A stretch of DNA of 64,000 bases, taken from assembly GCF_964204645.1 (NCBI RefSeq), contig NC_134035.1, forward strand, positions 3,238,001 through 3,302,000, given 5' to 3'. Both the position numbers and the translations under genes were made by a program. Below the pieces are notes generated by a model, which saw only the letters and a program-made list of their open reading frames with translations, was not told where the DNA came from and searched no databases. Of this stretch, positions 5,655-63,350 are shown piece by piece; the first letter of the stretch is position 1; each line of letters opens with the position of its first letter. This DNA is from Tubulanus polymorphus. Its lineage: Eukaryota > Nemertea > Palaeonemertea > Tubulaniformes > Tubulanidae.

Positions 5655-6488
5655 CTACGGGACGTTCATGCCTCGGGGCGTGTTCGTGTCGAGTCGTCGT
5701 ATCCAGTCTTGTTCGGCTGCTTCGCGGATCGGTCTCGTGGAGCCTGGTAGGTGTTGGGGACCGTACACCCGAAAGTGTTCGCGGGTGTGGTCGACTTGGT
5801 TGAAGTGGTCCGAGACTGGAGTCGAATTCTTCGTTCTGATGCGTGAGACGTGATGCGTGACGCGTTCTCGTAGAGACATTCCGGTTTGGCCGACGTACAG
5901 CATGTTGCACTAGGTGCATTCGATGCAGTATACAATTTCACGGGTCGCGCAATTAATTGTGCTCATGCGGATCGCGTGCATTTTGTTGTGGCTGCGGCAA
6001 ACGGTTGATTCTCGGACGAGTGGACACGTACGACATCTCGGTGTTCTGCATTTCTTGGTGCCTCGACGTCGGGTTGACGGAGTTCTTTGAGTAGACCTGG
6101 AAATAGAAGAATTGGAAACAACGGAAGTATTTCTGTTACGATGCGGTGAAGAGGGGACTCGGGGAGGGGGTGGCTCCGTGGGTTTGAGCTGCGACGAAGT
6201 TAGGAGATCTTTGAGACTCTTGTGCTTGGTGTAGGCGGTGACCGTGGTTACCTCGTCCGACCGGCCGGTGGCCGTAGCCAGTTCCGTAAATCTGGTTCGG
6301 ATGTTACGGGCTAGTAGGGTTCGGTTGGCTTCGGAGTGAGGTAAGATAAGTGGTAAACGCTTTTTCGGCGGTTCGTTGGCCCGTTGTTGTTCTCGTAGAT
6401 CTCGTTCGGCGTGGTGCCGTAGAGCTTGGCTTTTGATGTGTCGCAGTTCGCGGTCTTTGTAGCCACGACCTCTGAGTACTTTAAGTTT
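5655..6488 (-). pseudogene. Penelope-like retroelement relic (RT C-terminus plus GIY-YIG endonuclease)
   Basis: One minus-strand frame runs about 277 codons from 6488 to the stop at 5655, broken once by TAG at 5910-5912. The N-terminal part has the basic 'KLKVLRGRGYKDRELR' helix and a 'KKRLPLILPHSEANR' segment, as in the C-terminal region of Penelope-like reverse transcriptases. A low-complexity linker and a Cys cluster (KKCRTPRCRTCPLV) follow. The GIY-YIG module comes next, with IVYCIEC, then YVGQT, an RERVTHH catalytic-arginine segment, and a typical ending (WIRRLDTNTPRGMN). The TAG replaces a residue between the two conserved half-motifs. Upstream of 6488 the frame is closed and the RT core is missing, so this is a 5'-truncated dead copy. 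The retroelement class is firm; its subfamily was not assigned. Confidence 0.85.
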
Positions 6489-22997: not shown

Positions 22998-25900
22998 TTA
23001 TCCTTGCTTTTTCAATATCTCGTCTTGCATTGCTGGAATGATACCCTCCCGGAAAGCAACGTCCAGCAGCTCTTCCGAGTCGGCGATCTTCGGGTATTCG
23101 TGAATAGCCCATTTGAGGTAAACCATGAATTCCTTCCAATCGATTCCGCCATCGCTGTCCATGTCGATCGCTTGCAGGGCTCTCTTCGTGTCGGAGCAGC
23201 GATAGCAGCCGAAATAGGGCGCCATGAATCCGTTATAGAACGAATCGAACTCCAGCATATCATCGCCTTAAAATGTAACAGAAAAAAATATATATAGTAT
23301 TTACACACATAGGATTCGGTTCCTGGGCTAAGTAGGTGGTTTTGGAGTTGCAAATTGTAATTAGCCAAGTTAGAACATTAGCTACGGACCAGGGACCAGT
23401 TGCGTAGTCAAGACTTAAGACCAAAGGTGGTCTTAAATCTTAAGACTGATCTTGAGTTGTTAGATTGGCTATAGAACTAAGTTTGTCTTCAAAGCCCTGT
23501 CTATGGAACCGGACCCTGACGACTAGTTAACTTTGAACTTAAGTCAGGCCCGTACAACTGGGAGCTGTTTCAGGATTAGTGCATATTTACAATAACCTGG
23601 TGTCAAATTAGAAAACGTAAGAATACAGTACATTGAGGGATAACTTGTTTTGATTGGTGTATTATATACACCATTTAGATACTATTGTTTCTACGTTGAT
23701 TCGGCTCATTTTATCTGATAAAATCTACTGCTGTAGCGAAAGAGGTTACTTTTGGAAAATAACAGTTGCAAAGATATTGATTGAAGAACTCTCGTCAGAA
23801 CTTTACCTTGAACGGTATCTTTAAGATCCCACGTATCCCATATTTCACGAATCTCGGCAATAAGTCGTTCAGCATGAAGCGAATTGGTCTCCATTTTAGA
23901 AATAGCTTCACTCATCGCTTCGGTCAAAGAACCTCCCGCTCTATCGTATAGGATAGCTAAACCGACCATGCTTTGGTATTCTTCTTTCCTGAAAACGAAT
24001 CGAAAAAGAACCGACCGATGTATTTGAGTACTGAATTACATTAACGATCACTCTATACCCCAGGCGCGGATCCAGGGTCAAAGGGGGTTCACTTAGGGAA
24101 TGTTGGGCCTATTTCTTAGCTTCACCGCTGTTATTCTAATCAAAACAAAATCGTTGTTCCACATAAAGATCTTCAAGAATGGTAAAACAGCTAATTGCCG
24201 AAACAGGATTTCGATATCTTTCAGTTTTTCAACCAAATATTTGATATTTCTTCGGAGAATGATTCAGTCTGCAATATTTGAGGATGGAAACTATAAGGGA
24301 CCTCGACATTTTTTCGTGTTCTGGACTTCTGGTTCGTGTTGTGTATATACAACGATACCTGTTGTTGCGTAAGTCCTCGAGCATCTTCTCTTTCATTTTC
24401 GTCGTCCGTTCGGTTGTGAAATCAGCGTTTTCGCCGAACAGGTGCACCAGTCGCAGTCTGATTATCTCCGGTGTGGCGACGGTCGTGATGCGCATCGTAT
24501 TCTCCTCGCCGAAAAACTTGGCCATGTCGAAGTCGCCCTTGTCGAGGCTGTACACGAATTCCAAAGCCCTCTTGCCGTAGATAATCTGTCGGCCGTGCGG
24601 TTCCTTTTCGGTGGTGATTTTTGTCACGTTTCTGGCCGCTTGTCGCAAATAGCTACAGTTGTACCTGAAAATGGCGAAGTTTTACTCACGTTTATATGAT
24701 CGAAAGATTATATCATCAAATAACGCGGTAAAATCCTAGAATTCAGAAAAGAAAAAAGGCCCGAAAAGTTTCCTTGAGCTATAGTTAATTTTCATCTTCG
24801 TCTGCGGGTTCACTGATATAAGCATATAGTCGAAACGTTGAAACAAACTACTAGCTCGATGAAACCATTCGGACCCATCTATCTTTCCGATATTGTAGGA
24901 TTTTAGCGTTTTGTCGTTTCAGCTCGGACTCTGAATGTTTCAACAAGATTATCGTATTATAAGTGTATTGGGGACGGGGCATCATTCAACTCAAAGAATC
25001 TATCGAATCTGTTATAATTCGTTCTTTGTCCCTCGACCCAGACGGAGAGGCGTAACAGTGATGTCCCGCTCTGCCGTCGCTATCGTAAACTGACAGAATG
25101 AAATTTTCCCTGGACAGAATTCTCACCTTTTCAGGACTTTCTTATTGCCGAGTCGTATCAAGTTGGTAATTGTAACACACGATGAAGCGGCTCCCATCGA
25201 AGCGCCCTCGCAGCAAACGCTTGCCCATATTCCGTTACAGCCGAAAGCTAGTGCCTATAATATGACCGCAAAAAACACTGTTGAGACCTTGGTTGATGCT
25301 GTGTTCAAAGAGTTTGTAACGGGAAACGATGTTTTATTCATCGACTTGTTTGGTTCTCCAGGACCCAGTTCTACAGTTCTGGGTCCATTTCCACACATCC
25401 GAGTTAAGATTTAACTCCGAGTTAACTCATTGAAAATGAACTGACTTTAACTCAGAGTTAACTCTAACTCACAACTGTGGAACTGGGTCCTGAGTTTTAA
25501 TTCGACCCTTTCATTGAAAATGAAACGATTTCGCTCACAACTGTCGAACTGGAGCCAGAAATCATCAAGTCATTATGCAACCAAAATAGTTTGAAATTAC
25601 GATACTGATCTATATGAGCGAAAAGTTCAAATACCATATCCATGAAATAATGACCCAAGTGTAGAATCCGATTAAGTAGTTCCGGGACAAATCAAAATGA
25701 AGAACCGAATCACTACCGAAGTATGGAATAATGTTCCTACCACCCTTGCACTATTACCCCGTTTACTACACTTGGGCCAAAAAGGATCTTAATTTTTGCC
25801 GAAGAGAAATTCACTCACTTTTAGATTAGTTGCGTCACACAATCCATACTTTTCGTGTGTATGAACTAACAAATGACCCTTCCAATCATTGTTGTCCATA

Positions 25901-28640: not shown

Positions 28641-28754
28641 AATCAAAAAATCTAACGAACTTTACAAACCAAATAAACAACAGGGACAATCCCTATTTTA
28701 AGATCCAAAAAAAAAAAATCAACAGTGGAATAAGATCCTAACAAGTAGTTTATT

Positions 28755-28867
28755 CAAGATTTCGACTATAATATCCTAATAGTCATCTTCAGGATTACTA
28801 TTAGGATAGTAAAGCGAGATACTTGAGTATTCCTGAACATGACTATTGAGATATAGTCAAAATGTTG
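28755..28867. repeat. Inverted pair of hammerhead-like motifs
   Basis: On the minus strand (28792-28755): CTGAAGA, stem GACTAT/ATAGTC, then GAAATCTTG and AATAAACTACT. On the plus strand (28833-28867): CTGAACA, stem GACTAT/ATAGTC, then AAAATGTTG. The two lie head to head about 40 bp apart. Confidence 0.6.
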
Positions 28868-47967: not shown

Positions 47968-48080
47968 CTGAGCACCGATGTAACAATTAGGCTCTCCGCA
48001 AACAACGCCAGAATTAACAGTATAACGGCGAATAATTCTTTCCATTCTCTCCATCGCAAGGGATTTGTATGATCCTGTCC
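47968..48080 (-). CDS. Candidate internal exon, gene unknown
   Basis: On the minus strand, a pyrimidine-rich CTCTCTACAG acceptor precedes 113 bp that stay open in two frames and end at a CAG|GTATGT donor. One frame encodes a hydrophobic, membrane-like stretch (FAVILLILALFAESLIVTSV) after a polar WREWKE segment. The other reads RRYTVNSGVVCGEPNCYIGA. No partner exon was identified nearby, so this may be chance. Confidence 0.2.
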
Positions 48081-48149
48081 CTGTAGAGAGAATTCCACAA
48101 TAATAACGAAAAACAGTCCGAAAATGTAACTTTGAGCTACTAGTTTATT

Positions 48150-48184
48150 CAACGTTTCGACTATATTCTAATAGTCATCTTCAG
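48150..48184 (-). repeat. Hammerhead-like core motif
   Basis: Minus strand: CTGAAGA, T, stem GACTAT / loop TAGAAT / stem ATAGTC, then GAAACGTTG and AATAAACTAGTAGCTC. It matches the CTGANGA-stem II-GAAA core of hammerhead ribozymes. Stems I and III could not be established. Confidence 0.6.
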
Positions 48185-48386
48185 GAAGAGTGAATACATC
48201 GCTTCAACACGGATAATAGTGTTTTATCAATCATGATCCTGTCCCTGTTTGTCGGTTATCGGGAAGAAAAGTTTTCGTCGAAATATTGACCACACGATCT
48301 CCGTCGTGAGCGAACGGATAGGCCTATATACTGAACATTCACCAAAAACCTGGAACACTCAAGGGATTAGGATAATGCTTTTGACC

Positions 48387-48617
48387 ACGGGCCAGGGGCT
48401 GTTGGTTAAAGATAACCGGTGGATACTTACCATAGTTTACATGAAGTTTTTTTAATTGTCACTATGTCAACTATCCACTAATCTAACCAACTTTGGAGCA
48501 ACTGGCCCCCTGATCAAAGGTTGGTATGAGTTAAAACCAGTGGAAACATACCATTGACAATTGAATTTGTATTGTTACCATGTCCAACTCCGACCAAGTT
48601 TTGAGCAACCGACCCCT
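48387..48617. mobile_element. Two adjacent MITEs, family GGCCAGTTGCTCAAAAGTTG
   Basis: The first (about 48387-48511) has inverted ends GCCAGGGGCTGTTGGTTA and GGGGCCAGTTGCTCCAAA with paired TATCCAC/GTGGATA inner arms. The second (about 48514-48617) is more degraded and ends TTTTGAGCAACCGACCCC. Confidence 0.7.
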
Positions 48618-49028
48618 GAGTGTCATTGTAACGCAGACACCTAGGCAGGAAGGCTATTGTCTCGATACTTCTTCTTGAAATCGCCATAACTTTAGACCAC
48701 AGAAATCCAGTTTAATCAAACGGATTTTGCGGAATACCGTCGATACAGCCACTACCAGGACTGGGTGAAACTAAAACTGATTATTGGGCCGTACGTACTT
48801 ATCCCGGCCTTCCCTGTTATTTGAATTATGAGTTCGCACTCTGCGCCCCTCTCCCTCTGAGATGATGATCATCGATATAAACGAATATAGAAAAAACTGA
48901 TCATTTCTAATACGATTCGTATATATAGCGTTTATTAGTTTTTATCATTGCCTCCGTGCTACTGTCGTATCTCGAAAAAACCACTTAAATCTTTGAGTCG
49001 AGAAGATACACACTATGCGTGTAAGATG

Positions 49029-49279
49029 GATGACGAGAAAAATCCCTGACAATGATTCAGTCCGAGATGAAAAATTCTTGAATAGAAGAGACTTTATTTT
49101 GAGTACCGTTACGGCAAAACACTATCAGCCATCATCAGGCGTACTGATGATGGCTAAAATAGTGTACGCCTGATGATGGCTAATAGTGTTTAGCCGAAAC
49201 GTTGCTCAAAATAAAGTCTCTTCTATTAAAGAATTTTTTTATCTCGGACTGAATCATTGTGGCATTTTTTCCTCGTCAC
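49029..49279. repeat. 250-bp palindrome built from two hammerhead-like repeats
   Basis: The arms run from GATGACGAGAAAAAT to the inverted ATTTTTTCCTCGTCAC and share AATGATTCAGTCCGAGAT, AATAGAAGAGACTTTATTTT and the motif CTGATGA-TGGCT..-GCC-GAAACG. The plus copy (49170-49205) keeps CTGATGA, stem GGCTAA/TTAGCC and GAAACGTTGCTC. The minus copy (49139-49107) has GTAAC instead of GAAAC. Confidence 0.85.
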
Positions 49280-51670
49280 CTAAATTCTAATGCGCTTTCC
49301 TGTATGCCGTATAACGTCATTTATATCTACACACGTATATTCGTCGGGATTTGTTTTCTTGACGCAGTTTCGTTGATAAGATGATCTTATATAATGCCGT
49401 CTGCTTCGACGACGGAAACAACACTCGGCGCGTACGTATATTTCAAGGCGGCGAGAAATAACCCGACAGACGACGACAGAGATGCCGATCTAAAATAATC
49501 CAATTCGTATGTCGTCGATTATTTTCGTAAGATAAACTGTGTAGCCTTTTTACTCGACGTCGCGGGTTCTGTTTTGATTCTATTTAGCAGTCGTATCGCG
49601 ATGTCTCTCCGTCGAGGAGGAACTCTTTGAAATCCGAACGATTTGTTCGACGCTGTTGTGTGATAGCGGCGCTAACCGTCTTCAGCTCGGTGATATAGAG
49701 ACATAAAGAATTATTTAGAATTGTATACTTTTTTACGAACGTTATTATATGGGAACCTTCATCATCGCTAGTCGAGGATTCCGGTTTAAGCGAGCTATGA
49801 TTCATCCGCTAGGGGCTCGAAGATTTTAATAGTAACCATCTTGATGGATAGAGCGAAAATCAAGCGTGCTAAGCATCTTTTGAGTAAATGTTCCCTATGG
49901 CCCCTGTTTGCAGTACTAGTACGTCAGTATTTCATTATATCATTATAACTATGCAAAATTTGTACAGCACCTTATTCCGAAAGAGCGCTTTACACAACAT
50001 AAAATATAAAAGACTTCTGCTAAACGTCTCTGCTATTTTCTGCTATATGTCTCTCTAAAAAATGAATGAATTATCGTCAAAAACTAAATATGATGATATT
50101 CGAATTCGGAAGCCTCAAAATCCAAATCAGTTTCAAATTGACAACCCTTTAGATTAAGTATTAGTCATGCCATCTGTTTGGGATAGCCGGCGTTAATTTT
50201 CCTCAAATATCCCAAAAAACTACTAGAGATACCTCCATCGCCGTGTTCAAGAATGACAAGATTCTTTATCTGTACATTGACTACAGGAGCACGGGGTTAA
50301 GAGAAGTTTAAAATGTCTCGCGATGAGACGCGCGGAAAACAAACCGTTTCGTGCGGGTAATTTGTATTCTGGTATTGACGGCGCGTTATCGTGTGCCGGT
50401 GACAGCCGCCTGTCGAAGATGAAAACGCGCCGGAGAAACGAAGCTGACCGGTAGTATAATCATCAGCCGAACACGCCGGGGATGTACGTCATTTCGTGGA
50501 CACGTAATTATCGCAATCAAATGATTGATAATTGTATTTTTTTCCTCGCCGAGCGCCGGGACGTCGCTCAAACACGCCTCGGAAGACGTCGACGACTTTC
50601 GAATTATCTATGATGGGTAGTTTTTTAATAGTATAGCTTCCGAAATGTGTCTGGTTTTTATTTCTAATCCTACATACATGCAGGAAGCGCTCGGGACTTG
50701 GCGCTAAAAACAACTGCGGGATGCGCCCGTTACTAAATCTTGCCAAAATTTAAAACGGCACTTAACGGCTCTCAAAACCTTCTGCATAAATCCCGTAAAC
50801 TAATACCCCTTGCACTAGTTACTAAGCCCCGTTTCCGGCTGCGGGGCGAGTCTTATTTTTTTTCTCGCTTAAAATCCAGTTCTCCGAAACATCGGCCTCG
50901 TTCGTTTATAATATGAAATGTATCAGTCGATTTACGAGATTTTTGAGGTCGTTTCGTTTCGAAAGTAATCAGTCCCGTCGGAGTGATCATCGTTCCGAGT
51001 TCAATTTTATTTCTATTCCTTACTTATAATACAAAAGAAGATATATGGCGTATTTACGACAGTAACTACGTGTATACTCGATATAGAATGTAATAGGAAT
51101 ACGGTTCGGTTAGACAGAATCATGTTGATATGTATACGCATATTATATATTCCTCATATAGAACATAATATACAAAGAAGATAAAAAACAGATGTTCCCA
51201 ACCGATATCATAAGAAGGCTCCCTACACCGAGCTCTCGTTTTTGACGAGTATCTTCGAATTATAGCTTGATCTGTACACCAGTAAATGCAGTCTCCGAAC
51301 AAAATTCTAGATAAACATCAAGTGTAAATTCTTAATGCTGAAAAGTTTTCTGTGTATATACATCATGTCGTGTCAGACGTATCAGTTCTTGCAAAATAGC
51401 TCGCAGGGTCGGATCCCAAGGGTCTTATGGGACACATTTTCAACATCCTCAAATTTTGATTGCCTACTTTCGGGAAGAATCTGCCGAAAAAAATCTAGAA
51501 AATGACAATTTCTGTAAAATGAAGTCAAACTTGTCGGAAATTCTTGAAAGGTCCATTTTATTATCAATACGCTCAAAAGAAACATTCGATAAGGCCCTCG
51601 GGTCACGCAGACTCGTGACATATTTGAACGGCCATTTTGTATGCCCGAGATTTGGCAAATTGATAGATCA
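49280..51670. other. No gene recognised
   Basis: Several short frames on both strands overlap each other (49584-49805, 50386-50746, 51382-51687) without domains or consistent splice sites. A CpG-rich patch lies at about 50330-50620. Confidence 0.4.
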
Positions 51671-51942
51671 TTAAGCCAAACGCACACGACACAGAGAAAC
51701 AGGAAAACACAGAATTACGGAATCAAACATTGTTTGATCTTGTAAACATTGTTTCCCGAAAAATTGTTTCTCGTAAAACGAACTCGCCATGGGGAAACAT
51801 GACAGAAACGCGGAATCGAACTTGTTTGATTTGTGTTTCTCGTAAGCGCACACGACGCACACGACGCAGTGAAACGCTCGGAAGCATGTTTCTGTCTCCG
51901 GTTTCCGTGTTTCCTTGCGTCGTGTGTCGTTGGGATCAATTA
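51671..51942. mobile_element. MITE, family GCCAAACGCACACG, copy 2
   Basis: Left end AGCCAAACGCACACGACAC and inverted right end CCCAACGACACACGACGC. It contains inner copies of the same motif (GCGCACACGACGCACACGAC near 51845), so it may be two merged elements. TTA occurs beside both ends. Confidence 0.7.
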
Positions 51943-52244
51943 GTTTTTGAGAGGGGTGGCGTCGATGGATGGAACGGGGACGAGAGATGGATATCTGCGG
52001 GCATTATGTAGATTTCCGTCGCGCATTGAAGGTCACGATCGGCGTGCGATATGGTCGATTTTGCTCGATCGGTGTCGTGTCGCGACGGATGGGCTGATTG
52101 TGCTGTCGACCTTATATTCGAGACTCATCTACAGACGATAAGAATGTCACCGATACCTCGTTGAGAATCGTCGAGTGACTATTCTTGACTACGAATTAAT
52201 TGCATTCAAAAGAACCCGTCGAGCGTCGCATTAAGTATATTGTT

Positions 52245-52285
52245 AAAATGCTGTTGCTGTTGCTGCTGCTGCTGCTGCTGCGCTG
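52245..52285. repeat. CTG/TTG trinucleotide tract
   Basis: Interrupted (CTGTTG) followed by (CTG)7-8. No open gene contains it. Confidence 0.9.
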
Positions 52286-52569
52286 CACCTCTGTATAGAT
52301 TTTCGTAGACTTAATCTTATTAAACTAGTCGAATATAAGCGCTGCCCCAGGTTAATTTGGACGACGGCGCCGCCGGGTAGAAACGCCATCATCTGCGGAG
52401 TCCCAAGACTTTAACAATAACAGGAAAACTAACTTTCAAGTTCATCGACACCTCGGAAAATAACACTATAATTTGCTTGAATTTGTCGATAATAAATAAT
52501 ATGATATTTAGAATCATATAATATTAAGGAACAATAAGGTTATTTTTATTTGAATGTATCGTAGGCTTA

Positions 52570-52920
52570 ATTGAATTGAATTGGCTGGCAACCAGTCTAG
52601 CCCTGATATTGATGACGTAGGGCATATCTGCTCAAAATAATCATCAAAATTTATCGAAAATAAAATAGAAGTTATGAAATTTATGCCACTATTGTAATTG
52701 TTATTTCGAGACGCCAATATTGATGGCGTAGTACACTACGGGCTCAAGAAAACATTTCGGACTTTATTTTTCTTTTGCGGTTTAGGACAAAGTGTTTCAT
52801 CGATGGTTATCCAAAAAAATTCCCAAAAGACTCCTTCGAAACAGGTCAAAAACAGCATTCATTTTTTGAATCGGTTTAAATGCGAGTTCCATTGAATTGA
52901 GGATTTTTCAGCTTTTGACG
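52570..52920. repeat. Dimeric GATGACGTAGTGCAC repeat (copy 3)
   Basis: Leader GGCAACCAGTCTAGCCCTGA, cores at 52611 and 52722 (the latter mutated to GATGGCGTAG), closer together (111 bp) than in copies 1 and 2. Confidence 0.75.
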
Positions 52921-53159
52921 AAAATATTCATGCAGTATCGAGTAACGAAAGCAAATATTCATGGGCGCTAAAATATTTATTCAGATTTATTCAGAGAGTT
53001 GACACATGACGGTATCGATGTACGAAACGTTGCTTCTATATTATATTGGTCCCTACAACCGGGAAGGGTAAAAAGGTTGTCGAGCTGAGAAACATTGATG
53101 TAACGGAATAGATATGAAATGAAATAGATGGCCGGTTTTATGGATAAGGGGTCATTGCT

Positions 53160-53660
53160 CCCACTTGAGACCATAGTCTAAGACCATTTCAGTTCTATAA
53201 CTATCAATATAACCACTTAAGAGTGTAAGCTCATTTTGCTTCTATAGACAATCTAATAACGTAAGACCATTTTAGTTCCACAACCAATCAAACTACAGGG
53301 GCTCGTATCAGAGTTGTAGGTAATGTAAAAACGATAATCTGTTAATCCGATGTATATAGTATATATTTTATATACACTATATACATCGGATTAACAGATT
53401 ATCGTTTTTACATTACCTACAACTCTGATACGAGCCCCTGTGAATCAAACAACTTAAGACCATTCCAATGCACTATGCACAGGGTTTCAGTGCCTTAATT
53501 TTCTAAGTACAGCCTATTGGCTCGCACTCTATCCCCCGGAACCAACATTATGTATTGAAAAAAAATCTATCTATTCAAGCACATTTTAGTTCTATAACCA
53601 ATTCGGATTTTGGATTCGACACTCGACTATGGAACCGACCGACCTTTATAGGGCAAGGAA
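53160..53660. repeat. Host repeat (AAGACCATTTTAGTTC family) around the hAT MITE
   Basis: Several degenerate units of AAGACCATTTTAGTTC and CTATAACCAATC on both sides of the MITE. Related to repeats at 23.4, 39.3 and 61.0 kb. Confidence 0.6.
53294..53442. mobile_element. 149-bp hAT-like MITE with 8-bp TSD
   Basis: A nearly perfect palindrome. The ends are TACAGGGGCTCGTATCAGAG and, inverted, CACAGGGGCTCGTATCAGAG; the roughly 64-bp arms are essentially identical around an AT-rich centre. It is flanked by AATCAAAC at 53286-53293 and 53443-53450. The CAGGGG-type terminus plus an 8-bp TSD indicates a non-autonomous hAT element. The near identity of the arms suggests a recent insertion. Confidence 0.9.
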
Positions 53661-53889
53661 GGATGTCATCGTAGGAAGCCGCGGACGATGCCCCCAAGCT
53701 TTCGCAGAGTAACAAACAATTTCAAAGCCCCAAATGCCACATATACGCCAAGAAAAAGGTATTAGTGAGTGCAGTCAATCCATTGGCCTCATTTCGTGTT
53801 ATCCAGAACGGCTTGCCTGCATTTCTTTAGGTAAATTAACTTTTAGTGCTGCCCCGCTAAGTCAACGCACGTTCAAAGAATCACTTCAC

Positions 53890-53965
53890 TAACTGTTCAA
53901 GCAACTCCAATTTCAAAATCAAAACCCCCGCTTCGTTCCCAGCAGGTTAGGCGTGTTTGTTCAGT
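53890..53965 (-). repeat. Interspersed repeat A, copy 3 (fragment)
   Basis: Only the GGGAACGAAGCGGGGG and GATTTTGAAATTGGA blocks survive. Confidence 0.6.
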
Positions 53966-54242
53966 GACATAACAAATAACTCAAATCAAACGACCAATCA
54001 AGTAAATAGAGGTAAAATCTTCCCTATTTCACGGTGAAGAAATCCGGATTTAGAAAACCTTCGACGATTTAATTCAGTTTTATCAGTCACTATAAAAAAA
54101 CTAAGAGGGTAATGACATTTTGTTGACTCAATCCTTTGAGCCATTTTCTAAGTTCAGAACTTCGTGACGTTTAGACTCAATTCAATGAGCCATTTCCAAA
54201 AGTAGTGGCGTTTAGACTCAGTTCTACGAGACATTTTCGGTT
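53966..54242. other. No gene seen
   Basis: A loose repeat of 'GACTCAATTCAATGAGCCATTTTC' type occurs two to three times at about 54125-54240, written here only as a pattern. Nothing coding. Confidence 0.4.
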
Positions 54243-54369
54243 TTGAAAATTTCTCATAAAAAATCGAGCCGAAACGTCGAATATTCTCGTTATAGTTCAT
54301 TCTTAGTATCGTTGGCTTTCCGTAACAATAATCGAATTAGACACAGTTTCATCTTGTCTATTGAAACCA

Positions 54370-54480
54370 CCCGTGCAGGTTTCTTGCGCGCCCGGCGCCC
54401 CTGCAGGTTTCTTGCTCGCCCGGCGCCCCTGCAAATTTGCCTGCGCGCCCGCCCCTGCAAGTTTTCCTGCACTGCAAGTT
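54370..54480. repeat. About 30-bp GC-rich tandem repeat, four copies
   Basis: The unit CCCCTGCAGGTTTCTTGC followed by GCGCCCGGCG decays along the array. Arg/Pro/Ala-rich frames on both strands derive from it. Confidence 0.8.
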
Positions 54481-54714
54481 CATCTATCTCGAAACGGAGT
54501 TGCGCCGATGCGCGTTATAGCACGTCGTCGACGCGTCATACGACGAGTGCGCGCGCCAGCTCGACAACGACTCATCAATAGCCACCGCACGCTCAAAAGC
54601 AGTCATCGCCTTTCATTTTTCTCGGATAAACTGAAACAACTCAGCGAACTCGTCTCGACGAAGAACTATAACAAATTACAAAGCGACAATCGTCAACGAT
54701 TCTCTAAAAAGGTA
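54481..54714 (+). CDS. Possible coding exon ending at a consensus donor
   Basis: The frame reads a basic stretch, then an amphipathic helix-like segment (FFSDKLKQLSELVSTKNYNK) and QRFSKK, ending precisely at AAAAAG|GTAAGA. No downstream exon was found and the upstream part is GC-repeat derived. It could be a first exon of an otherwise unrecognised gene. Confidence 0.2.
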
Positions 54715-55176
54715 AGACGCAATTAAGTATACGCTGAAAATTGTATCGTTCATCATAAAACAACGTGGTTCAACCGATTTACTTTTTAGTTTAAATCTAT
54801 AGAATTTTTAGTAATGAAAAACATTTTCAGTCTTAACTATCGTCGTCATACGACGGAATACAGCTAGCAGGAAATGTTCTTAGATTTGCGATTTTAATCT
54901 ATAAATCGATATATTTTTTTGCTAAAATATTTGTCGATTTTGATTTCAAAGAAATAGAAAAAAACTGAATGTAGAAAACATAGCGTTTTATACTCGTTTC
55001 AAATAAGATTTATTTTCATTGATTCACCGCATTGGTAAGCTTCGGTAACAATTCCATTCTTTTGTCAAAATATCCCCCGAAGGCTTCGCTAATCAAAGTA
55101 CAACATGTAGAAACATCTAAAATAATTCCTCGACCTCGGATAGAAATGCGCAATCTTTGAGGTCGGATCGCTATCA
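54715..55176. other. No gene seen
   Basis: AT-rich and featureless to inspection. Confidence 0.4.
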
Positions 55177-55490
55177 GGATCCAGTTCAAACGTTATTGTG
55201 AGTTACTCTGAGATGAATAAGTTCATTTTCGATGAGTTACCTCTTGAGTCGAATCGGGTGATTTTAAAGTTATAACGAATTCTATGCTGTGTAAGTCAGC
55301 GAGAGAGTTAAATCTTGGGCCCGGTTTTATTGGCTAGATGTCATAGTAATCTTTATAGGGTAAATCCTCACCCAGACCAACTTCTGCAGTGTTGTGAGTT
55401 AGAATTTGACTAATAGAAAATTGACTATAATCTAAACTATAATCTTAACTGAATGTTAACTCCAGGTGATATGACCGGGAACTGGATCCC
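55177..55490. mobile_element. MITE, family GGACCCAGTTCCACAG, degenerate pair
   Basis: GATCCAGTTCAAACG start, TAAGTTCATTTTCGATGAG centre, and a second decayed unit ending near GGAACTGGATCCCAGG (55478). Confidence 0.55.
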
Positions 55491-56618
55491 AGGGTTCATG
55501 TCTTACGAAAAAGTTTAAGCCATATCTTCGGTTTGATTGCTCAAATTGTTAATTCATGTTTCCAACGAGTGCAAAAATTAAAACTAAAACCGTTTTAAGC
55601 TTGAACATTATCGTGATTATCGGGACCCACAGTGTTATTTTAATGTAACCGCCATAGTTTTAATGAGAAACAAAAAAATTGACGAATTTAGAAAATGTTC
55701 TCGGGGATTATTTTTTACCCCGCGTATTTCTAGAACTCGGCGCAGTAGAGATCGACCGAGAATCGATGATCATTCCCAGCTATGACGTACGCGCACGACT
55801 TCGCCATTTTTCGGCATATTCGCGCGTTCGATAGCAAAACAACGTTTGGTCATTTACGAATAACGTGTTCTTTCGAGAGAGATCGAACCGCGTCGAAAAT
55901 CCCGTCCGATATATATTATAAATAGCGACCGCCTGTTGAAGAATTGATATTTCGCCGAGTGCATTTTACGACTCGCGTTTCGGCCTATGACGAGTTGAAC
56001 GAAAAATTCCCATTTTCGTCAATAAGATTTCGCGCGCGCGCGCTCGCACGACGCCACTTCGCGATCGAAAGAGCCGACAATAATCGGCGAAATCCTGAGA
56101 AAAACATCAACGGTTTTACGAACGTTCTCCGCCACGACAGCAGCCGCCGGCTTAAATAGAGTTTTAATTAAAAGCCAGAAAATTCTTCTAGCCGCTTTCG
56201 AAAGTACCCAAACTCGTGCAGATTAGAAATATCTACATCAAAAGACAAAAGCGCTGGTGGAATTTCCAGTGAATTATTGTGTTTTTTCCCCGATGAGACG
56301 TTCGAAGCTGTCGATGAATCCTACATTATTCCTTTTGTTTCTGCGTGAAAAAAAACATTACTTTCGATGTTTTATAGAAGAAAAAAAAGATTCTTTATCC
56401 CGAACATTTTCAATCATTTTCCATCGCGATTCGAATCAGGAACGGGCAAAAAAAAATCTCGATCGCGTTTTCTCAGTCGAATCGAGATCTCTGCGACGAT
56501 CGCTACATATTTCTAGTTATTTCTGTATAATTCACGCCGGATTAAGCTCGCGAGGAATTCGGTAAAATGATTATGGATGTCTGCGCGCGAAGCCCATACT
56601 TTAAACTTTCCCCCTTGA
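55491..56618. other. No gene recognised; CpG-rich block
   Basis: Around 55740-56160 the sequence is rich in CG and GCGCGCGCG; frames there have no recognisable domain. It may be a regulatory or promoter region. Confidence 0.4.
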
Positions 56619-56740
56619 GTCTAACGCGCACACGGCACAATGTTCGTTTCATCAAAACAAAAAAACACGTTTTTCACAAACGAATATTTCAATTTGAATA
56701 TTTCAACGCACACGGTATGACGATGTTGTGCGCTGGGCTT
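56619..56740. mobile_element. MITE, family GCCCAACGCACACG, copy 3
   Basis: Left GTCTAACGCGCACACGGCAC and inverted right AAAGCCCAGCGCACAAC, with an internal AACGCACACGG motif. Confidence 0.6.
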
Positions 56741-57260
56741 TATTCGTATTCACGTATATAGTTACTGTCATTCTGTAGAGATGCTAATCGTCAAAATGAT
56801 AATCAGCGATGGAATTTCATCTAATATCGTCGAGGCAAAGTTAACATTTTTGTGGAAAAACGGCTCATCAAAAGTGGGAACAGAACCGATAACTCTTTCT
56901 CCTTATCTGGGCAGTATCGCCTAGAATATTCCTTCTACTCAGAAAATTTGTCGATCTTCAAAAAGGGAATTGTCCTTCTCGTTATAATTCGGTTGATTTA
57001 TTCTCTATTTGATGTACGCTCATTTCTAGGCGTATCCAAAATATTGTTCGCAATATTTGCATTTATGATTGTTACACAACTCTTTGCAATACGTATTAGA
57101 TTGATCGTCTAATTGAATTCGCGATTCTAGCAAATTCTCTATCGATCGTTGGTTTTCTTCGCGCGTAAAAGAATCAACGTTAGGTTCAACGGCGTCGATC
57201 TTGAAATAGAGACGTTTTTGTCCATTTTATTTTAATTCGATCGATTAGATTTGCTAAAAA
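56741..57260. other. No gene seen
   Basis: An 86-residue hydrophobic frame (56852-57112 plus) contains two membrane-like stretches, but there is no homologue, promoter or splice support. Confidence 0.35.
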
Positions 57261-57264
57261 GCCG

Positions 57265-57480
57265 ACCACGCCTGCCGGAAATGAACGAAAAAGAGGGTTT
57301 GATTTTGAAATCAGAAATCGAAGATACATATACAGATACAGTTGTGTGATCGGCGATCGAATTTACGGATTTTTGTGTCTAAATCAAAGCGATAATACAT
57401 CATTGGAAATTTCGGTCCCAACCAGACAACCAGCCCGAACCGACAAGAACTACTGTTAAGACAGTCTCCGCTGGGCCGTA
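57265..57480 (+). repeat. Interspersed repeat A, copy 4
   Basis: GCCTGCCGGAAATGAACGAA, GGGTTTGATTTTGAAATC and the downstream AACCAGCCCGAACCGACAAG blocks align with 60.4 kb. Confidence 0.75.
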
Positions 57481-58330
57481 GATTGCCGCGCGAACTGTGT
57501 CAGGGCGAAATAACCTGTCCAATATACCATTCCGTCGACATTATTTCGAACAAGCGCCGTGCATCATCCGGCATACTGATAACTACATCCGTGTCTAATA
57601 AATTGGTTAATAATATATAAAACCGACCGAAGACAATATCTGGGAATTACTTCATCAACGGGCCCGGGTTTCACCGTCGGTTCGTAAATTTGTTATCACG
57701 CAAGTCGTCGACGTCGTCGATCGTCTGCGCGCGTCGTGGCGTATATGTATTTGACGAAGCGTCGATTGCAATTTTCGCGCCAAACCGCCGCGAGCGCTTC
57801 GACACCGGCGTATATAATACGAAAACTAACGCCACAGCAGCAGCGGCGGCGGTGGCGGTGCATCGCGATGAATAAAATATATCCGCAGATTATTTTTGGT
57901 CATAAAACTTGGATTAACTAATCAATCCCGGCGTGATGGTCGCGCCTCGACTTGCGAACACCGATGGCGTTTTGTGCAGAGACGACGCGCGTTCGTAACA
58001 ACAATTAGTTATATTATACCGCGCACACCGCGCACACCGCGCACAGCGTAGAATATTTCCATTGAATTTCATCAAACGATCCGAATTTCAGGAAATTTTC
58101 CAATTTATTCAATCGGAAGTTGATGAAATAGCGGTCGCTTTTCAATCAGACTCGCTTTTCAAACCGAGTTCTATAACGCCGCGGTAATAGCGGTAGTTAA
58201 ACCGTCGAAGAAGCTTTTGAAATCAATCAGTGTTGAGATCGTCTCTTCGTTCGCTATTGTTTATAAGTGGCCGAACGGCGTGACAACTTCGACGAAAAAG
58301 GCACACGCAGTTTTCAAACAAACAGTAAAT
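57481..58330. other. No gene recognised; CpG-rich, short tandem repeats
   Basis: Includes a (CGG/CAG) tract at about 57830-57862 and three copies of GCGCACACC at 58020-58047. Short frames are compositional. Confidence 0.4.
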
Positions 58331-58656
58331 TCGAGCGCTAGCGCGCGCACGGCACGAAATGAACGCGAACGTTTCGTTTCTCCGGCCTGTTTTGCTAGCG
58401 CGTGCGCAGCTACGAAACAAGAAACGCGGTTTCGATCACCGTGTGCGATGTAAACAAGGAAACTTTTGGTCAGTGCTGTTGCGAAAGTTGGTTAAAGTCA
58501 ACTATCCACTGGTAAATATATAATAGTTTTCGCCATGTATATATGCAGAATGAATAATATATAATTACGAACAGGTTGCATACATAGGCGGCTGGATGCT
58601 TGGAAAGCTAATAAAGGCTGTGTCCCGTAGGGATCCAAGCACCAAGATAACTCTAA

Positions 58657-58809
58657 AGCCAAACGCACACGACGCATGGAAACAGGCTTTAAAGGGTTGC
58701 GCTGTGTCGTGCGCGTTTGCGAGAAACATTATTTCGGGAACAATGATTCCGAGATAAAACATGCTTCTTTCCGTGCTTCCGTGTTCCCATGCGTCGTGTG
58801 CGTTGGGCA
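58657..58809. mobile_element. MITE, family GCCAAACGCACACGACGCA, intact copy with TAA TSD
   Basis: The ends AGCCAAACGCACACGACGCA and, inverted, TGCCCAACGCACACGACGCA match over about 28 bp. TAA lies directly on both sides (58654-58656, 58810-58812). A 3-bp TWA duplication is typical of PIF/Harbinger elements. A decayed relative lies at 58333-58450. Confidence 0.8.
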
Positions 58810-58812
58810 TAA

Positions 58813-60405
58813 CCAACTTTCGAGCTGAACACCTTTATACGTTTACCCCGGAATCACCCACCTATGATTACGTAATCTTAGTTCCGTACACTTTCGATTT
58901 AGCGCGTCCTCTGTGAAATCAATATCCAGCGAAATACTCATAACTAGAATACACGAAAAACTCATAAAACAAACTGATCTACTTTTGCGCGAGCATCGGC
59001 TGTGCGGTAATAACACCGATATTCGGCGTGGCTTCCCGGAGTCTGATAAATCAACGCGTGTAACTAAATATCGTCGGCTATATTACGACTGAACTCGACG
59101 GACGGATAGCTCGGTATGTCACCGGCAATCATAGCTTGATCAGCATATAATGAAAATGTTTGAACGGAAGAAGAAACGTTCGCCGCGGTATAAGATTCAT
59201 CCGAACCACGACTCGACGGCGCGATTGCTATTACGTTTCATATAACGACGACGGGAAAATAGGTAAAAAGTTTCTCCAAATCGGAAAAAGGACCACGCAT
59301 CGCGCGATATCCGACGCCCGTCACCGAAAATAAACTAACAACCACCGCACGTTAGATACGCGCAATTTGCTAATGATTAATGATGAAAATGCGGCCCTAG
59401 TGTTTTCGAATGTCGGTTCGGTCGCCTGGCAGCCATATTCAATCGACCGCCGAAACCGGCGCAATCTCATCTCCTCGGCAAATAGGCCCAATTATACGCG
59501 AAACAATCTCGACGAAAGCCTTTTCGGGATAATTTGACGAGAATTGAAACCGATTCCGAGTGGCTGGAATTATATTCTTGACGCGCGGAAACCCGTCTAA
59601 TACACAATGGCGCCTCGACGAATTTCAATGCCGCCATTGTTCGCGTCGCGGAAATCTTACCGAGAGTCTTGACGCAACGAAAATGATGAAAATTTGATAC
59701 GTCATTACTAACGCGCACCTAGCGGCTATTTCTGTATCAACATTTTTTGAATGCTATATAGCTAATGTTTTTTTCTGGTTATTGATAGTGTTTAACTGTC
59801 TGTTTGCCGAACGCCTCGGGGCTCGCGTATCTTTTTGAATGGATATTTTCGTAAAGCTCTTCGGTGATGTTTTTGTCTGTCTTTCAAAATGTACTATCCG
59901 TTAAAAACATCGTTCTTGCGCGAATATCCGCGCTCGCAGATAATGGCATATTTTCGGTAAGAAAACGCGCCTTGAAGCGTATCATGTGCAGAAGGCTTTG
60001 AAATATATATTTCTTACGCGTTTCTTATTTGATGAATTGATCGTTTAGAGATCAATTCATGATATATATTCATATATATATATATACGTCGACAAGACAA
60101 CAGAAATAGCAGAAAGACAATCGACGACAACGAAACATTATCGACAAACAATGATACGATCATAAGTGTAGAGCTTGGAAATGGTTGATTTGGTTAGCGA
60201 ATGATACCGATCTATAATCCGTGTTTGATCCGTACCTCTCTTCTATTGAGTTATCTAGAAAAAGTTATTCTTGCATCACCGCGCACATGGCGGTATCATA
60301 GGATGGATTGCATAGGCGGTAGCTTTTTGATCTAAAAAAAAATTAGCGATTGACCCTGTCATCTAACTATTTGGTAGATTTTTGTTTTGATTTGGTATCC
60401 CTTAC
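58813..60405. other. No gene recognised
   Basis: CpG-rich patches (58990-59480), a (TA)n tract at 60061-60086 and short frames without domains. Confidence 0.4.
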
Positions 60406-60605
60406 AAACCAAGCGCACCTGCCGGGAGCGAAACAGGGGGTTTGATTTCGAAATCGGAAATCGAAGTACAGATAAAGTTGTGTGATCGACGGTCGAAATT
60501 ACAGCATTTTCTGTTAAAATCTGAGTACATAATTTGAGATTTTGGTTCCGGTTCATTCACACAATCTTCCAACCAGCCTGAATCGACAAGTGTCAAATTC
60601 CTTCT
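60406..60605 (+). repeat. Interspersed repeat A, copy 5 (best preserved)
   Basis: Contains TGCCGGGAGCGAAACAGGGG, GATTTCGAAATCGGAAATCG, GTGTGATCGACGGTCGAAAT and GGTTCCGGTTCATTCACACA in order. It serves as the reference for the other four copies. Confidence 0.8.
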
Positions 60606-60964
60606 AAGAAAAACGACGGCCCCGATCCAACCAAATAGAGGGCTGTACGTTGTTTTAAACAATAAAGCTTAACAACATGAATTTTATCACACAATAACAG
60701 TCACACATTACCACGAAAATACAAAACCGATACTTTTACATCTTACGGAGTTCCATCGCTACTACAATGATAAAACATACACAGATCGAAAAAATGAAAT
60801 ACACAAAAAAGAACTCCCGTGTGTTATCACGCCATTATCGGTTTTTTCTCAACAGGTGTCGCCACCAGCCGATATCGGAAATAATATATATATATATGAT
60901 ACATGACAATACGCGACGGTATATTAGCTTAAAAAGACGAGGTTTAACGCACGTGTTTAGCCAA

Positions 60965-61060
60965 GCTGGACCCAGTTAAGACAAATCTTGGGTTGTAAGA
61001 TTGGATATTGAACAAAGATTGTTCGTCTTAAATCTAAGCCATGTCTGTCCAACTTGCCTC
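60965..61060. repeat. Repeat with GACAAATCTTGGGTTGTAAG
   Basis: Short copy of the family seen at 23.4, 39.3 and 53.2 kb (the 'CTTGAGTTGT.AGATTGG' pattern). Confidence 0.5.
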
Positions 61061-61443
61061 CGGATTTATTAGGTTAATACTGCTATGCAAGGCCGGTCCT
61101 TTGATTATAAGCTTTTGTGATGTATGCGATACTAGCTGTGTTCGCATAAAGCAAAAATATCACGGGACAAACATAATCCGTTTAGCCTCGGACCATCCGT
61201 CTAAATAAGTAATGACAATACAATCCAATAGATTGAATCTAATAGTATATGACAAGTAAAACAGAGTCGCGTTACAGCACCAACTTAACAACAGGATTAC
61301 TGTATTTATCACTGAGACTGATACCTCACAAATTACGGACAGAATTTCGTGACGAGTGTTGATTTATATAATTGGATATTGAACGATAAGGACTCCGCAG
61401 TCGATTGTGGCAATTGAGGATTCCGCTTGTGGCAAGTGATGAT

Positions 61444-61456
61444 CCACCAGGTGGCG
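61444..61456 (+). promoter_or_regulatory. CTCF-like motif
   Basis: CCACCAGGTGGCG on the plus strand, a close match to the CTCF core. Confidence 0.4.
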
Positions 61457-61961
61457 ACAATATCGAAAATCGCGCAAAGATGGCGGATTTATTTCTTCCC
61501 GGATTCAACAGAAAGAATCTATCCATGATTTCTCATATTCTATATGGACGGTAGATAAAATCTGCGCCTTATATGAACTCTAAAGGTCAATCCGAGTTCA
61601 ACTTGAGACTAGATTTGCCTAAATTTTCTGTACGAATTTCATTGAAATGAACTTAGTTCTGATCAATATTGGAGAAGGAATTAGGAATTGATTTACACTC
61701 CAACAATTTCCATGGTATATGGAGGAAAACTATGAAAAATATATACGATATTTACAAAACAGAAAATAATATATCATCAACATTAAATATATACAATTTG
61801 TACAATGTATTAACTATTGGAGGGACCTATATACATCTAAGCCTATTTTGATGAATTTAGCAAACTGGGTTGTTGGATTCTTTTTGAATATCAAGGTTAC
61901 CAAAAGTGTTCAAATTCCGATGGTTTTCGTGGATTTCAAGAATATTGTCCTATTGTTGTGC

Positions 61962-61975
61962 GCGCCATCTGGTGG
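61962..61975 (-). promoter_or_regulatory. CTCF-like motif
   Basis: CCACCAGATGGCGC on the minus strand, facing the motif at 61444. Confidence 0.45.
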
Positions 61976-62544
61976 GATGAAGCACGGAGCCCTCCTCATT
62001 GCGGTAGAAACCGACTGCGGTCGAAGAGGCCGAGATGATGCATCCGGGCATAATCACCTCTCCAAGTCAATGCGGCTTCCGTTTAATTATGTATCATATA
62101 ACACTACAACCGATCGTTTAATTAAAGTCACGTCGGGTTTCAATATTCAATGTTTCTGGCGCGATACAGATACTAAACACAGGTATCATCGTTTGTCATT
62201 CGGGCGGTGGATGCGCGTTCGGAGCCGAGAGAGAGAGAGAATGTCTAATAGTATAGCCGCTGTCTAAACGACTCGGCCGCGTTAACGACTGTTCGGACCG
62301 CGAGCGCTACGGCCATTATCGTTCATCATTTTTCTTTTTTTTGAAAAACAAAGATATTACACGCCGGACGCGGCTGTTAAGTATATCGGCGATGTCGAGT
62401 GCCGACGGCGCTCTGTCAGTCAGTCATGAAAGAATTAGTATTCTCGTTATGTGTTTTGAAGAAAGAAAATATTATATGATGAATCGATGAAAAATCGGCG
62501 AAAAAACCCAAAGAATATAACCATTGCTGAAACAAACGTCATTT

Positions 62545-62579
62545 CTGAAGACGACTATCAGAATATAGTCGAAACGTTG
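62545..62579 (+). repeat. Hammerhead-like core motif
   Basis: CTGAAGA, C, stem GACTAT / loop CAGAAT / stem ATAGTC, then GAAACGTTG and AATGAACTATCAGCTC. The same arrangement as the minus-strand copy at 48.15 kb. Confidence 0.6.
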
Positions 62580-63350
62580 AATGAACTATCAGCTCAAGGA
62601 AACATTTCCGACGTCCTTTTTCGTGATGATTTAGTGTGAGGATTTCCTTTATTCATATCTTTCTTTTATTGCCGTGTCATCGACGTCAAGACGTTTACAC
62701 ATACTCTCAATGATACAAACCCCCGGAGAAACTTCCGTCGAATACACGGTATATTCGTAAGGGAAGCAAAAGTGCGAAATCACGTACAAAATAAACCATG
62801 ATTAGAACTAACTTTTATTGTCGAATCCTCCCTACAGAGGATTTATTCGATGAAATAGTAATGCTTTAAATGAACACCCAGCGACGAATTGTATTTACAA
62901 CCAGCTTACGATCGCGTATATAGTCTTCTATATACAATCCCGACGGTATTCAACCTATACCCTTCGTTTATACGGCTGTTATTCTAAGCATATCGTGATA
63001 TATATCGAATAGGTTTCAGCTCGCGCGCGGACGTGACCGTTTGGAGTTTCGCCGCCGACGTTAACGAGATGACACTACACGACGGAAACGATGATTTGGT
63101 CGGTACCTGTTAAATGTCGTTCGTCAGATGCTGTACGAGTCTCGCGGGACCGGACATACCGGTGTCTAAATAGTGGCTGTGACGCGTAGATAGTCAAACG
63201 CGGACAATACGCCTATAATGTCAGTTAATTACCTGCGTATATCATCGCCGTATAGACGGTTCCTTGTATCAGTTCATATCACAAGCACGCGCGAATATTA
63301 GTTTTTCTTTAGCAGCAAATCACGTTGCTATATTCGCTTTGTATCGAACC
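62580..63350. other. No gene seen
   Basis: Mixed composition with CpG-rich segments at 63010-63080 and no supported feature. Confidence 0.4.

What the first reader, a model, noticed from the sequence alone, without database searches (positions are those of the whole stretch)
48150..62579. Dispersed family with a hammerhead-ribozyme-like core
At least six places (24813, 28755, 28833, 48150, 49107/49170, 62545) share CTGANGA, a short perfect stem, then GAAAC or a near variant. In the best copies the stem is GACTAT/ATAGTC or GGCTAA/TTAGCC. The stem bases differ between subfamilies while pairing is kept, and the flanking CTGANGA and GAAA stay constant, which is what a hammerhead stem II with its catalytic core would show. 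Hammerhead ribozymes are known in Penelope-like retroelements and small retrozyme-like repeats of animals, and a Penelope-like relic is present here. Stems I and III and the cleavage site could not be established, so self-cleavage is only a hypothesis.
Basis: partly seen in the sequence, partly recalled or inferred. Interest (0 to 1): 0.75.

Follow-up and report, generated by a model that had tools for sequence, protein, structure and literature searches.

The report
Hammerhead ribozyme relics of Penelope elements
The repeated motif is the small hammerhead-type self-cutting RNA that Penelope-like jumping genes carry near the start of their transcripts, left behind in many short copies; the kind is already known, but this genome shows its anatomy unusually clearly.

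Summary
Three window sites carry an intact motif, CTGANGA-Y-[6-bp stem]-GAAACGTT (62545 +, 49170 +, 48184 -); the other named sites are decayed. The genome holds at least 2,727 exact motifs against 5 for the reversed control. Across 38 distinct copies, stem II and a previously missed stem I are kept by double-sided changes (92.7% of cells paired; at most 43.9% when slid). The motif sits in the terminal repeats of Penelope-like elements (RT plus GIY-YIG) of five lineages, three with long open frames, and each named window site aligns to one of two of these lineages. It is therefore best read as the minimal type I hammerhead of Penelope-like elements, without helix III (palindromic ACGU instead), predicted to cut ACGUU^G. 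No Rfam hammerhead model matched, and every aligned copy has one extra nucleotide between CTGANGA and stem II. Short insertions of about 150-340 bp, many with 9-17 bp target duplications, begin near a predicted transcription start just before the ribozyme, so they lack the promoter; I infer that they arrive dead. Self-cleavage was not tested. New member of a known kind.

The parts
62545..62578 (+). intact hammerhead motif of lineage A (CTGAAGA C GACTAT..ATAGTC GAAACGTT); predicted cut after 62578
62539..62544 (+). 5' strand of stem I of the 62545 copy (TCATTT)
   Evidence: sequence; six pairs incl. one G-U
62579..62584 (+). 3' strand of stem I of the 62545 copy (GAATGA)
   Evidence: sequence
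62541..62610 (+). pLTR fragment of a lineage-A Penelope-like element, 81% identical to L041
48151..48184 (-). intact hammerhead motif of lineage A (CTGAAGA T GACTAT..ATAGTC GAAACGTT); stem I reduced to 3 bp
48085..48232 (-). short pLTR insertion holding the 48184 copy; 3' tail (from 48197) in inverted orientation
48069..48084 (+). target site duplication, left copy, 16 bp (ATGATCCTGTCCCTGT)
   Evidence: sequence
48233..48248 (+). target site duplication, right copy, 16 bp
   Evidence: sequence
49170..49203 (+). intact hammerhead motif of lineage D (CTGATGA T GGCTAA..TTAGCC GAAACGTT); stem I 2 bp (3 bp in L040)
48994..49267 (.). head-to-head two-armed lineage-D pLTR relic: tail-bearing arm 48994-49147 (-) with decayed ribozyme, short arm 49164-49267 (+)
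   Evidence: no convincing target duplication (longest repeat 5 bp)
28744..28797 (-). lineage-A pLTR fragment with a near-intact motif (GAAATCTTG)
28828..28867 (+). lineage-A pLTR fragment facing it head to head; core broken (CTGAACA..AAAA)
24817..24857 (+). lineage-A pLTR fragment, 5' half of the core lost
5664..6476 (-). Penelope-like RT/GIY-YIG relic of a different lineage (37% identical to L042 ORF2)

Best explanation
The sites are relics of the minimal type I hammerhead ribozyme carried by Penelope-like retroelements (PLEs). Shown: a fixed core CTGANGA / GAAA, stem II and inner stem I kept by compensatory change, helix III replaced by a palindromic ACGU, and location in the pLTR upstream of an RT + GIY-YIG frame, repeated at each boundary of a tandem array. 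Inferred: two copies on a tandem transcript pair their ACGU stretches to make a double hammerhead, which cuts after ACGUU. Inferred from insertion ends: transcripts start at an initiator-like A, the seventh base before the ribozyme core; reverse transcription starts on either side of a stem-loop about 95-140 nt after the start of the core (the known PLE 'tail'); so many insertions are short, promoterless, ribozyme-bearing fragments, often head to head, which is what the window holds.
For: At least 2,727 exact motifs versus 5 control. Covariation: 92.7% of 342 cells paired, 8 of 9 pairs with a double-sided change, covariation score 0.649 versus 0.278 in shuffles (0 of 500 reach it) and at most 0.189 when slid. 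Mean ungapped stem I (G-U allowed) 3.30 bp against 2.09 (sd 0.21) with shuffled partners over 37 copies. PLE linkage: L041 (A) has three ribozymes 2,856 bp apart, units with 2 mismatches and open frames of 739 and 833 aa; RVT_1 and GIY-YIG over cut-off in all four RT-bearing frames scanned, from L040, L041 and L042; L044 (B) has RT/EN homology over 796 codons with 3 stops and a 713-aa open stretch, ribozyme in the downstream and the inverted upstream pLTR; in L026 (C) the homology ends 75 bp before the motif; L042 (E) has the same core with a different stem I (AGTTA/TAACT) and stem II (GAT/ATC). Insertion ends: of 30 head-to-head loci fetched, 19 have both arms reaching position 150 (C3 = 61); 17 of these 19 have one arm ending at 154-165 and the other at 194-202; 31 of 38 inner arm ends lie at 52-56. 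Target duplications of 9-17 bp in 13 of 19, against 16 of 600 random controls at 9 or 10 bp and none longer. Papers: PMC11167929 (main text section read) describes a minimal hammerhead at the ORF start of a lizard PLE and RT start in an AC-rich stem loop 111-118 bp into the ORF; the stem-loop here lies 101-117 (A) and 106-122 (D) nt after A9. PMC3846280 (passages): inverted pLTRs, tail on one arm, short TSDs. PMC7761336 and PMC6466107 (passages): minimal type I hammerheads in PLEs, thought to act as dimers.
Against: No Rfam hammerhead model matches, even at E up to 10 on short stretches; one model over the whole genome also gave none (its control genomes gave none either, so that search says little). 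All 38 aligned copies and L042 carry one nucleotide between CTGANGA and stem II, which the textbook core (recalled) lacks; pattern search found 0 copies without it for the stem types GRCT..AGYC. Helix III cannot be tested by covariation because ACGTT was fixed in the search patterns and in L042. The number of pairs with a double-sided change (8) is not far above shuffles (mean 6.6; 62 of 500 reach it), nor is the number of further pair types (20 against 17.6; 35 of 500). Single-strand folds of B, C, D, E and the 49170 copy prefer an extended hairpin that pairs GANG with CGUU. In 6 of the 19 two-armed loci no target duplication of 9 bp or more was found (one of these with a wrongly set border). 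No cleavage data exist for these copies.
Confidence: 0.9

Rival explanations
1. The motif is a plain structured RNA hairpin (for example a binding site for the PLE protein), not a ribozyme: GANG pairs with CGUU and the extra U pairs with the G of GAAA, giving one long interrupted hairpin.
For: ViennaRNA prefers this fold for single strands of lineages B, C, D, E and the 49170 copy; the extra nucleotide is T (37) or C (1) in the 38 aligned copies and could pair with that G in all 38.
Against: The helix shows no compensatory change (0 of 5 pairs), though three of its pairs were fixed by the search pattern. Its N11-G38 pair is broken in 19 of 38 copies because position N7 is A there; N7 is the position that hammerheads leave free (recalled). 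In L042 the extra nucleotide is A. It does not explain why the fixed bases are the hammerhead core. In a lizard PLE the related motif lost cleavage on C3 or G8 mutation (PMC11167929).
Confidence: 0.08
2. The short copies are a separate non-autonomous family (retrozyme- or SINE-like) that multiplies by itself through ribozyme-made circular RNA.
For: Short elements with hammerheads, target duplications and many copies resemble metazoan retrozymes of about 170-400 nt (PMC7229834, passages); 33 of 35 loci fetched by pattern show no PLE-coding match within 1.5 kb.
Against: Their inner ends lie at the predicted transcription start, so they lack the TATA box that starts 31 bp upstream of the initiator A in the A and D elements; neighbours are head to head (12 of 12 within 300 bp among 100 listed places), not head-to-tail; their ends coincide with the predicted start and the tail, not with the ribozyme cut.
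Confidence: 0.07
3. The repeats are palindromic DNA transposons (MITEs) whose inverted repeats happen to contain the motif.
For: Two-armed copies are inverted repeats, many flanked by target duplications.
Against: The same sequence is the pLTR of RT-bearing elements; the two ends are unequal in 17 of 19; a one-armed insertion exists (L004).
Confidence: 0.02

Closest known systems
Minimal type I hammerhead ribozymes of Penelope-like elements (Cervera & de la Pena 2014; Lunse, Weinberg & Breaker 2017; seen here only as cited in passages of PMC7761336, PMC6155905, PMC6466107, PMC7229834 and in PMC11167929)
   Same: Hammerhead core, stems I and II, no helix III, palindrome in place of helix III, pLTR location, tandem copies, thousands of dispersed copies in one genome
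   Different: One nucleotide between CUGANGA and stem II in every aligned copy; I could not check whether the published consensus has it, because both primary papers are not held (the DOI tried was wrong)
Poseidon PAc hammerhead of Anolis carolinensis (PMC11167929)
   Same: Ribozyme beside the ORF start, stem loop about 110 nt on where RT starts, insertion ends at RT starts ('tail')
   Different: PAc's ORF is said to begin at the start of stem II; here the first in-frame Met of the long frame lies 139 (A) and 144 (D) nt after the ribozyme start, and in L042 the ATG follows 9 nt after the predicted cut. The ATG within CTGANGATG suggests (inference) that PAc has the same extra U
Penelope elements of Adineta vaga (PMC3846280, passages)
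   Same: Head-to-head inverted pLTR, one arm 37 bp shorter, 31-bp tail on one arm, TSD 8-10 bp, TATA box followed by an initiator-like sequence
   Different: Here many short two-armed copies without ORF; TSD 9-17 bp where found; TATA starts 31 bp from the initiator A in A and D
Metazoan non-LTR retrozymes (PMC7229834, passages)
   Same: Short elements with type I hammerheads
   Different: Canonical hammerheads in short head-to-tail tandem repeats; not seen in the loci examined here

Membership tests
Hammerhead ribozyme (general) | Core C3 U4 G5 A6 N7 G8 A9 and G12 A13 A14 A15.1 (numbering recalled) | tested here: met
   Present in all 38 distinct copies, but the core was part of the search pattern, so invariance is by selection; also present in the distant lineage L042, found through its protein. 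N7 varies: A 19, T 13, C 6
Hammerhead ribozyme (general) | Stem II with compensatory changes | tested here: met
   6 of 6 pairs with a change on both sides, 94.3% of cells paired
Hammerhead ribozyme (general) | Stem I flanking C3 and the cleavage site | tested here: met
   3 inner pairs, 2 with double-sided change, 89.5% of cells paired; outer pairs 4-6 pair in only 14-17 of 38
Hammerhead ribozyme (general) | Helix III or equivalent closing A15.1-U16.1 | tested here: inconclusive
   No hairpin possible within ACGTT; palindrome ACGU could pair between two copies; no variation sampled, so no covariation
Hammerhead ribozyme (general) | A9 directly followed by the first pair of stem II | tested here: not met
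   One extra nucleotide in 38 of 38 aligned copies and in L042; 0 copies without it by pattern. [quoted passage not shown]
Hammerhead ribozyme (general) | Match to an Rfam hammerhead model | tested here: not met
   no hammerhead family listed
Hammerhead ribozyme (general) | Self-cleavage at NUH | not testable with these tools
   predicted GUU^G; needs a transcription assay
PLE-type minimal type I hammerhead | Stems I and II only, in the pLTR of a PLE near the ORF start, repeated in tandem units | tested here: met
   L041: ribozymes at 5920, 3064 and 208 (-), 2,856 bp apart, RT/GIY-YIG frames between
PLE-type minimal type I hammerhead | Palindrome in place of helix III | tested here: met
   ACGU in lineages A-E
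PLE-type minimal type I hammerhead | Activity as a double hammerhead (dimer) | not testable with these tools
   needs a cleavage assay; the co-folds do not model it
Penelope-like element | RT followed by C-terminal GIY-YIG endonuclease in one ORF | tested here: met
   L041 RVT_1 330-500 then GIY-YIG 689-722; L040 and L042 ORF2 in the same order
Metazoan retrozyme | Head-to-tail tandem monomers with canonical hammerheads | tested here: not met
   12 of 12 neighbours within 300 bp, among 100 listed places, are head to head; no helix III

The most novel reading that the evidence does not exclude
In these Penelope-like elements the ribozyme is placed exactly at the 5' end of the messenger: TATA box, then an initiator A as the seventh base before C3, so the first transcribed bases are the 5' strand of stem I. 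Cutting would remove the cap, and the constant extra nucleotide after CUGANGA marks a distinct hammerhead subclass. A ribozyme at the cap site could act as a switch between translation and the tandem read-through RNA needed for a full-length copy.
Probability: 0.33. Interest if true: 0.55.

Novelty: new member of a known kind. Interest (0 to 1): 0.38.

Why it matters
Hammerheads in Penelope-like elements are known but their role is described as unknown (PMC7761336, passages). A genome with at least one recent tandem array and many insertion footprints lets the predicted transcript start, the ribozyme and the reverse-transcription starts be placed relative to each other to within a few bases. 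It also gives five natural ribozyme variants with different stems for a cleavage test. The Rfam searches run here did not recognise this class, so annotation that relies on Rfam would miss such copies.

Tried and rejected
Rfam at gathering threshold over the window, at E up to 10 over 47.9-49.5 kb and over three short stretches: no hammerhead. The MIR1435 hit at 49067-49240 covers the inverted repeat and is below its cut-off. RF00163 over the whole genome gave nothing, but nothing rang in the controls either. Pfam on ten open frames of the window: nothing at E up to 0.01. I first thought that the two arms of head-to-head copies came from two unrelated RNAs; in 17 elements the arms are more alike at shared variants (0.086) than randomly paired arms (mean 0.192, none of 2000 as low), which speaks for one source or for copying one arm from the other, so I dropped it. 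A tail-to-tail control search found 2 places, but it is not a fair control because pLTRs extend over 100 bp beyond the motif; the head-to-head pattern (247 places, control 1) also catches some unrelated repeats in its listing. A stem II without the extra base was searched for and not found. Loci were taken from the first places listed (contigs C1 and C2 mainly), not at random; 15 of the first 35 were chosen for unusual stems, and some loci overlap (L002/L003, L010/L011, L017/L018). Rows without the exact 34-nt core were left out of the alignment (38 distinct of 79 found). In one search, 11 of 30 loci were left out of the end count because one arm ended before position 150; in L057 the left border used for the TSD search was wrong. 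L044, which I had first taken for an unbroken frame, has 3 stops. The organism was not identified.


Full report
Check of the observation. A scan of both strands for CTGANGA, a perfect stem and GAAA gives three intact copies in the window: 48184-48151 (-), 49170-49203 (+) and 62545-62578 (+). The copies at 28792 (-), 28833 (+), 24813 (+) and the minus-strand partner near 49107 are decayed to different degrees. The window lies in a 267.8-Mb genome (G000, contig C11; organism not named and not identified here), where CTGANGAN{12,30}GAAACGTTG occurs at least 1373 times on one strand and 1354 on the other, against 2 and 3 for the reversed pattern.

Stem II and stem I. The genome holds several subfamilies with different stem II: GACTAT/ATAGTC (A), GGCTGT/ACAGCC (B), GATCTC/GAGATC (C), GGCTAA/TTAGCC (D). 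The bases directly before CTGANGA and directly after GAAACGTT also pair, and differently in each: TTATTC/GAATAA (A), CCAC/GTGG (B), ACAC/GTGT (C), CGC/GCG (D), AGTTA/TAACT (E, L042). Many short A copies have one unpaired base in this stem (GAAATAA or GTAATAA). On 38 distinct copies 92.7% of 342 cells form a standard pair; all six stem II pairs and two of three inner stem I pairs show a change on both sides. Sliding the partners by 1-3 columns drops pairing to 25.7-43.9% and the covariation score from 0.649 to at most 0.189. Two measures are weak against shuffling: the number of pairs with a double-sided change (8; 62 of 500 shuffles reach it) and the number of further pair types (20; 35 of 500). 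Among 37 copies mean ungapped stem I is 3.30 bp against 2.09 (sd 0.21, highest 2.78 of 200) with shuffled partners. A rival helix pairing GANG with CGUU shows no compensatory change and one of its pairs is broken in 19 of 38 copies.

What carries it. A GIY-YIG search scored 150 of 306 first-look candidates; the 150 matches are over the cut-off, a number of them in open frames of 800-841 aa. L041 (C12, lineage A) shows three ribozymes exactly 2,856 bp apart; the two units differ at 2 positions and hold open frames of 739 and 833 aa, the latter with RVT_1 and then GIY-YIG. L040 (lineage D, 817 and 544 aa) is alike. L044 (lineage B) matches the A protein over its length at 58%, but with 3 stops and a 713-aa open stretch; it has the ribozyme in the downstream pLTR and in an inverted upstream pLTR. 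In L026 (C) PLE homology ends 75 bp before the motif. L042 (E) is a distant relative (28% identity over 436 aa to A) with its own stems and the same CTGACGA / GAAACGTT. In 33 of the 35 loci fetched by pattern no PLE-coding match lies within 1.5 kb, so short copies prevail in that sample. Each named window site aligns to the pLTR of A or D, best alignment 80-89% identity. A relic of an RT/EN gene, nearest to L042, lies at 6476-5664 (-).

Where the insertions start and stop. In unit coordinates with C3 = 61, 19 of the 30 head-to-head loci fetched have both arms reaching position 150. In 17 of these one arm ends at 154-165 and the other at 194-202; the remaining 2 have two short arms. The two ends flank a stem-loop, AACACGGATATTGTGTT at 168-184 in A and TACACGGATATTGTGTA at 173-189 in D, that is 101-117 and 106-122 nt after A9; in A the longer ends fall at the ATG of the long frame (unit 199). 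In the lizard PLE studied in vitro, reverse transcription starts in an AC-rich stem loop 111-118 bp into an ORF that begins at stem II, and the 'tail' is the stretch between two RT start sites (PMC11167929, main text section). Target duplications of 9-17 bp flank 13 of the 19; random placement gave 9 or 10 in 16 of 600 trials and never more. The window copy at 48.1 kb has a 16-bp duplication, 48069-48084 and 48233-48248. The inner ends lie at 52-56 in 31 of 38 arms. In the PLE units of lineages A, B and D an initiator-like TCANT has its A as the seventh base before C3, and in A and D a TATA box starts 31 bp further up. The B units gave no match to the TATA expression used; the C copy showed neither at that place; in E the initiator-like A is the fifth base before C3 and a TATA box starts 42 bp further up. 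I read the A/B/D position as the transcription start; no RNA data were available.

How it most likely works. Step 1 (inferred): transcription from the pLTR starts at the 5' strand of stem I. Step 2 (inferred from the motif and from papers seen as passages, PMC7761336 and PMC6466107): because helix III is only the palindrome ACGU, a single motif is weak and two motifs on a tandem transcript pair to form a double hammerhead that cuts after ACGUU. In the lizard element cutting needed the protein and was not needed for insertion in vitro (PMC11167929). Step 3 (inferred from footprints): reverse transcription starts beside the tail stem-loop and runs to the RNA's 5' end, so an event on the first such site of a transcript gives a short piece with the ribozyme but without promoter or ORF; full-length copies would need a read-through transcript of a tandem array. 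Step 4 (footprints shown, mechanism open): close neighbours are head to head (12 of 12 within 300 bp among 100 listed places). The two arms share source variants more than random pairs do (17 elements), which fits the self-priming proposed for Adineta PLEs (PMC3846280, passages) or two copies of one RNA. The window copies are such relics. Of the intact cores, only 62545 keeps a six-pair stem I.

Known or new. Minimal type I hammerheads in PLE pLTRs, lacking helix III and thought to act as dimers, and thousands of dispersed copies in animal genomes are in print (PMC7761336, PMC6155905, PMC6466107, PMC7229834, passages). The two primary papers are not held. So this is a new member of a known kind. 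Points I did not find stated in the passages read: the fixed spacing from a predicted start to C3, the constant extra nucleotide after CTGANGA (0 copies without it and 17 with A or C in its place for stems GRCT..AGYC), and the near-strict rule of one tail per two-armed insertion (PMC3846280 calls the tail optional on one arm). Two searches that combined Penelope with transcription start returned 6 and 4 papers, seen as listings only; none names PLE hammerheads and transcription start in its title.

Noticed in passing
L042:2084-6473 (G000:C4): A Penelope-like element with a second, upstream ORF bearing a weak GDSL lipase/esterase match (E 1.8e-6, 29.1 bits, below Pfam's cut-off of 32.9) in front of the RT + GIY-YIG ORF; the ATG of the upstream ORF follows 9 nt after the predicted ribozyme cut. 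GDSL ORFs are reported for Terminons (PMC6431247, passages), whose RT elements lack the endonuclease.
   Followed up: partly
window 5664-6476 (-): Relic of a Penelope-like RT/GIY-YIG gene nearest to the L042 lineage, not to the lineages whose pLTR fragments lie at 24-62 kb.
   Followed up: partly
   Followed up: partly
window 49067-49240: The head-to-head pair forms a long hairpin that scores 72.8 bits against the Rfam miRNA precursor family MIR1435 (cut-off 94); such PLE copies could be mis-annotated as miRNA precursors.
   Followed up: no
G000:C12:8927200-8933200 (L041): Tandem PLE units with only 2 differences in 2,856 bp, so the family has been active recently or the array is being homogenised.
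   Followed up: no
window 31874-33277 (+): Open frame of 467 aa with no Pfam match at E up to 0.01.
   Followed up: no
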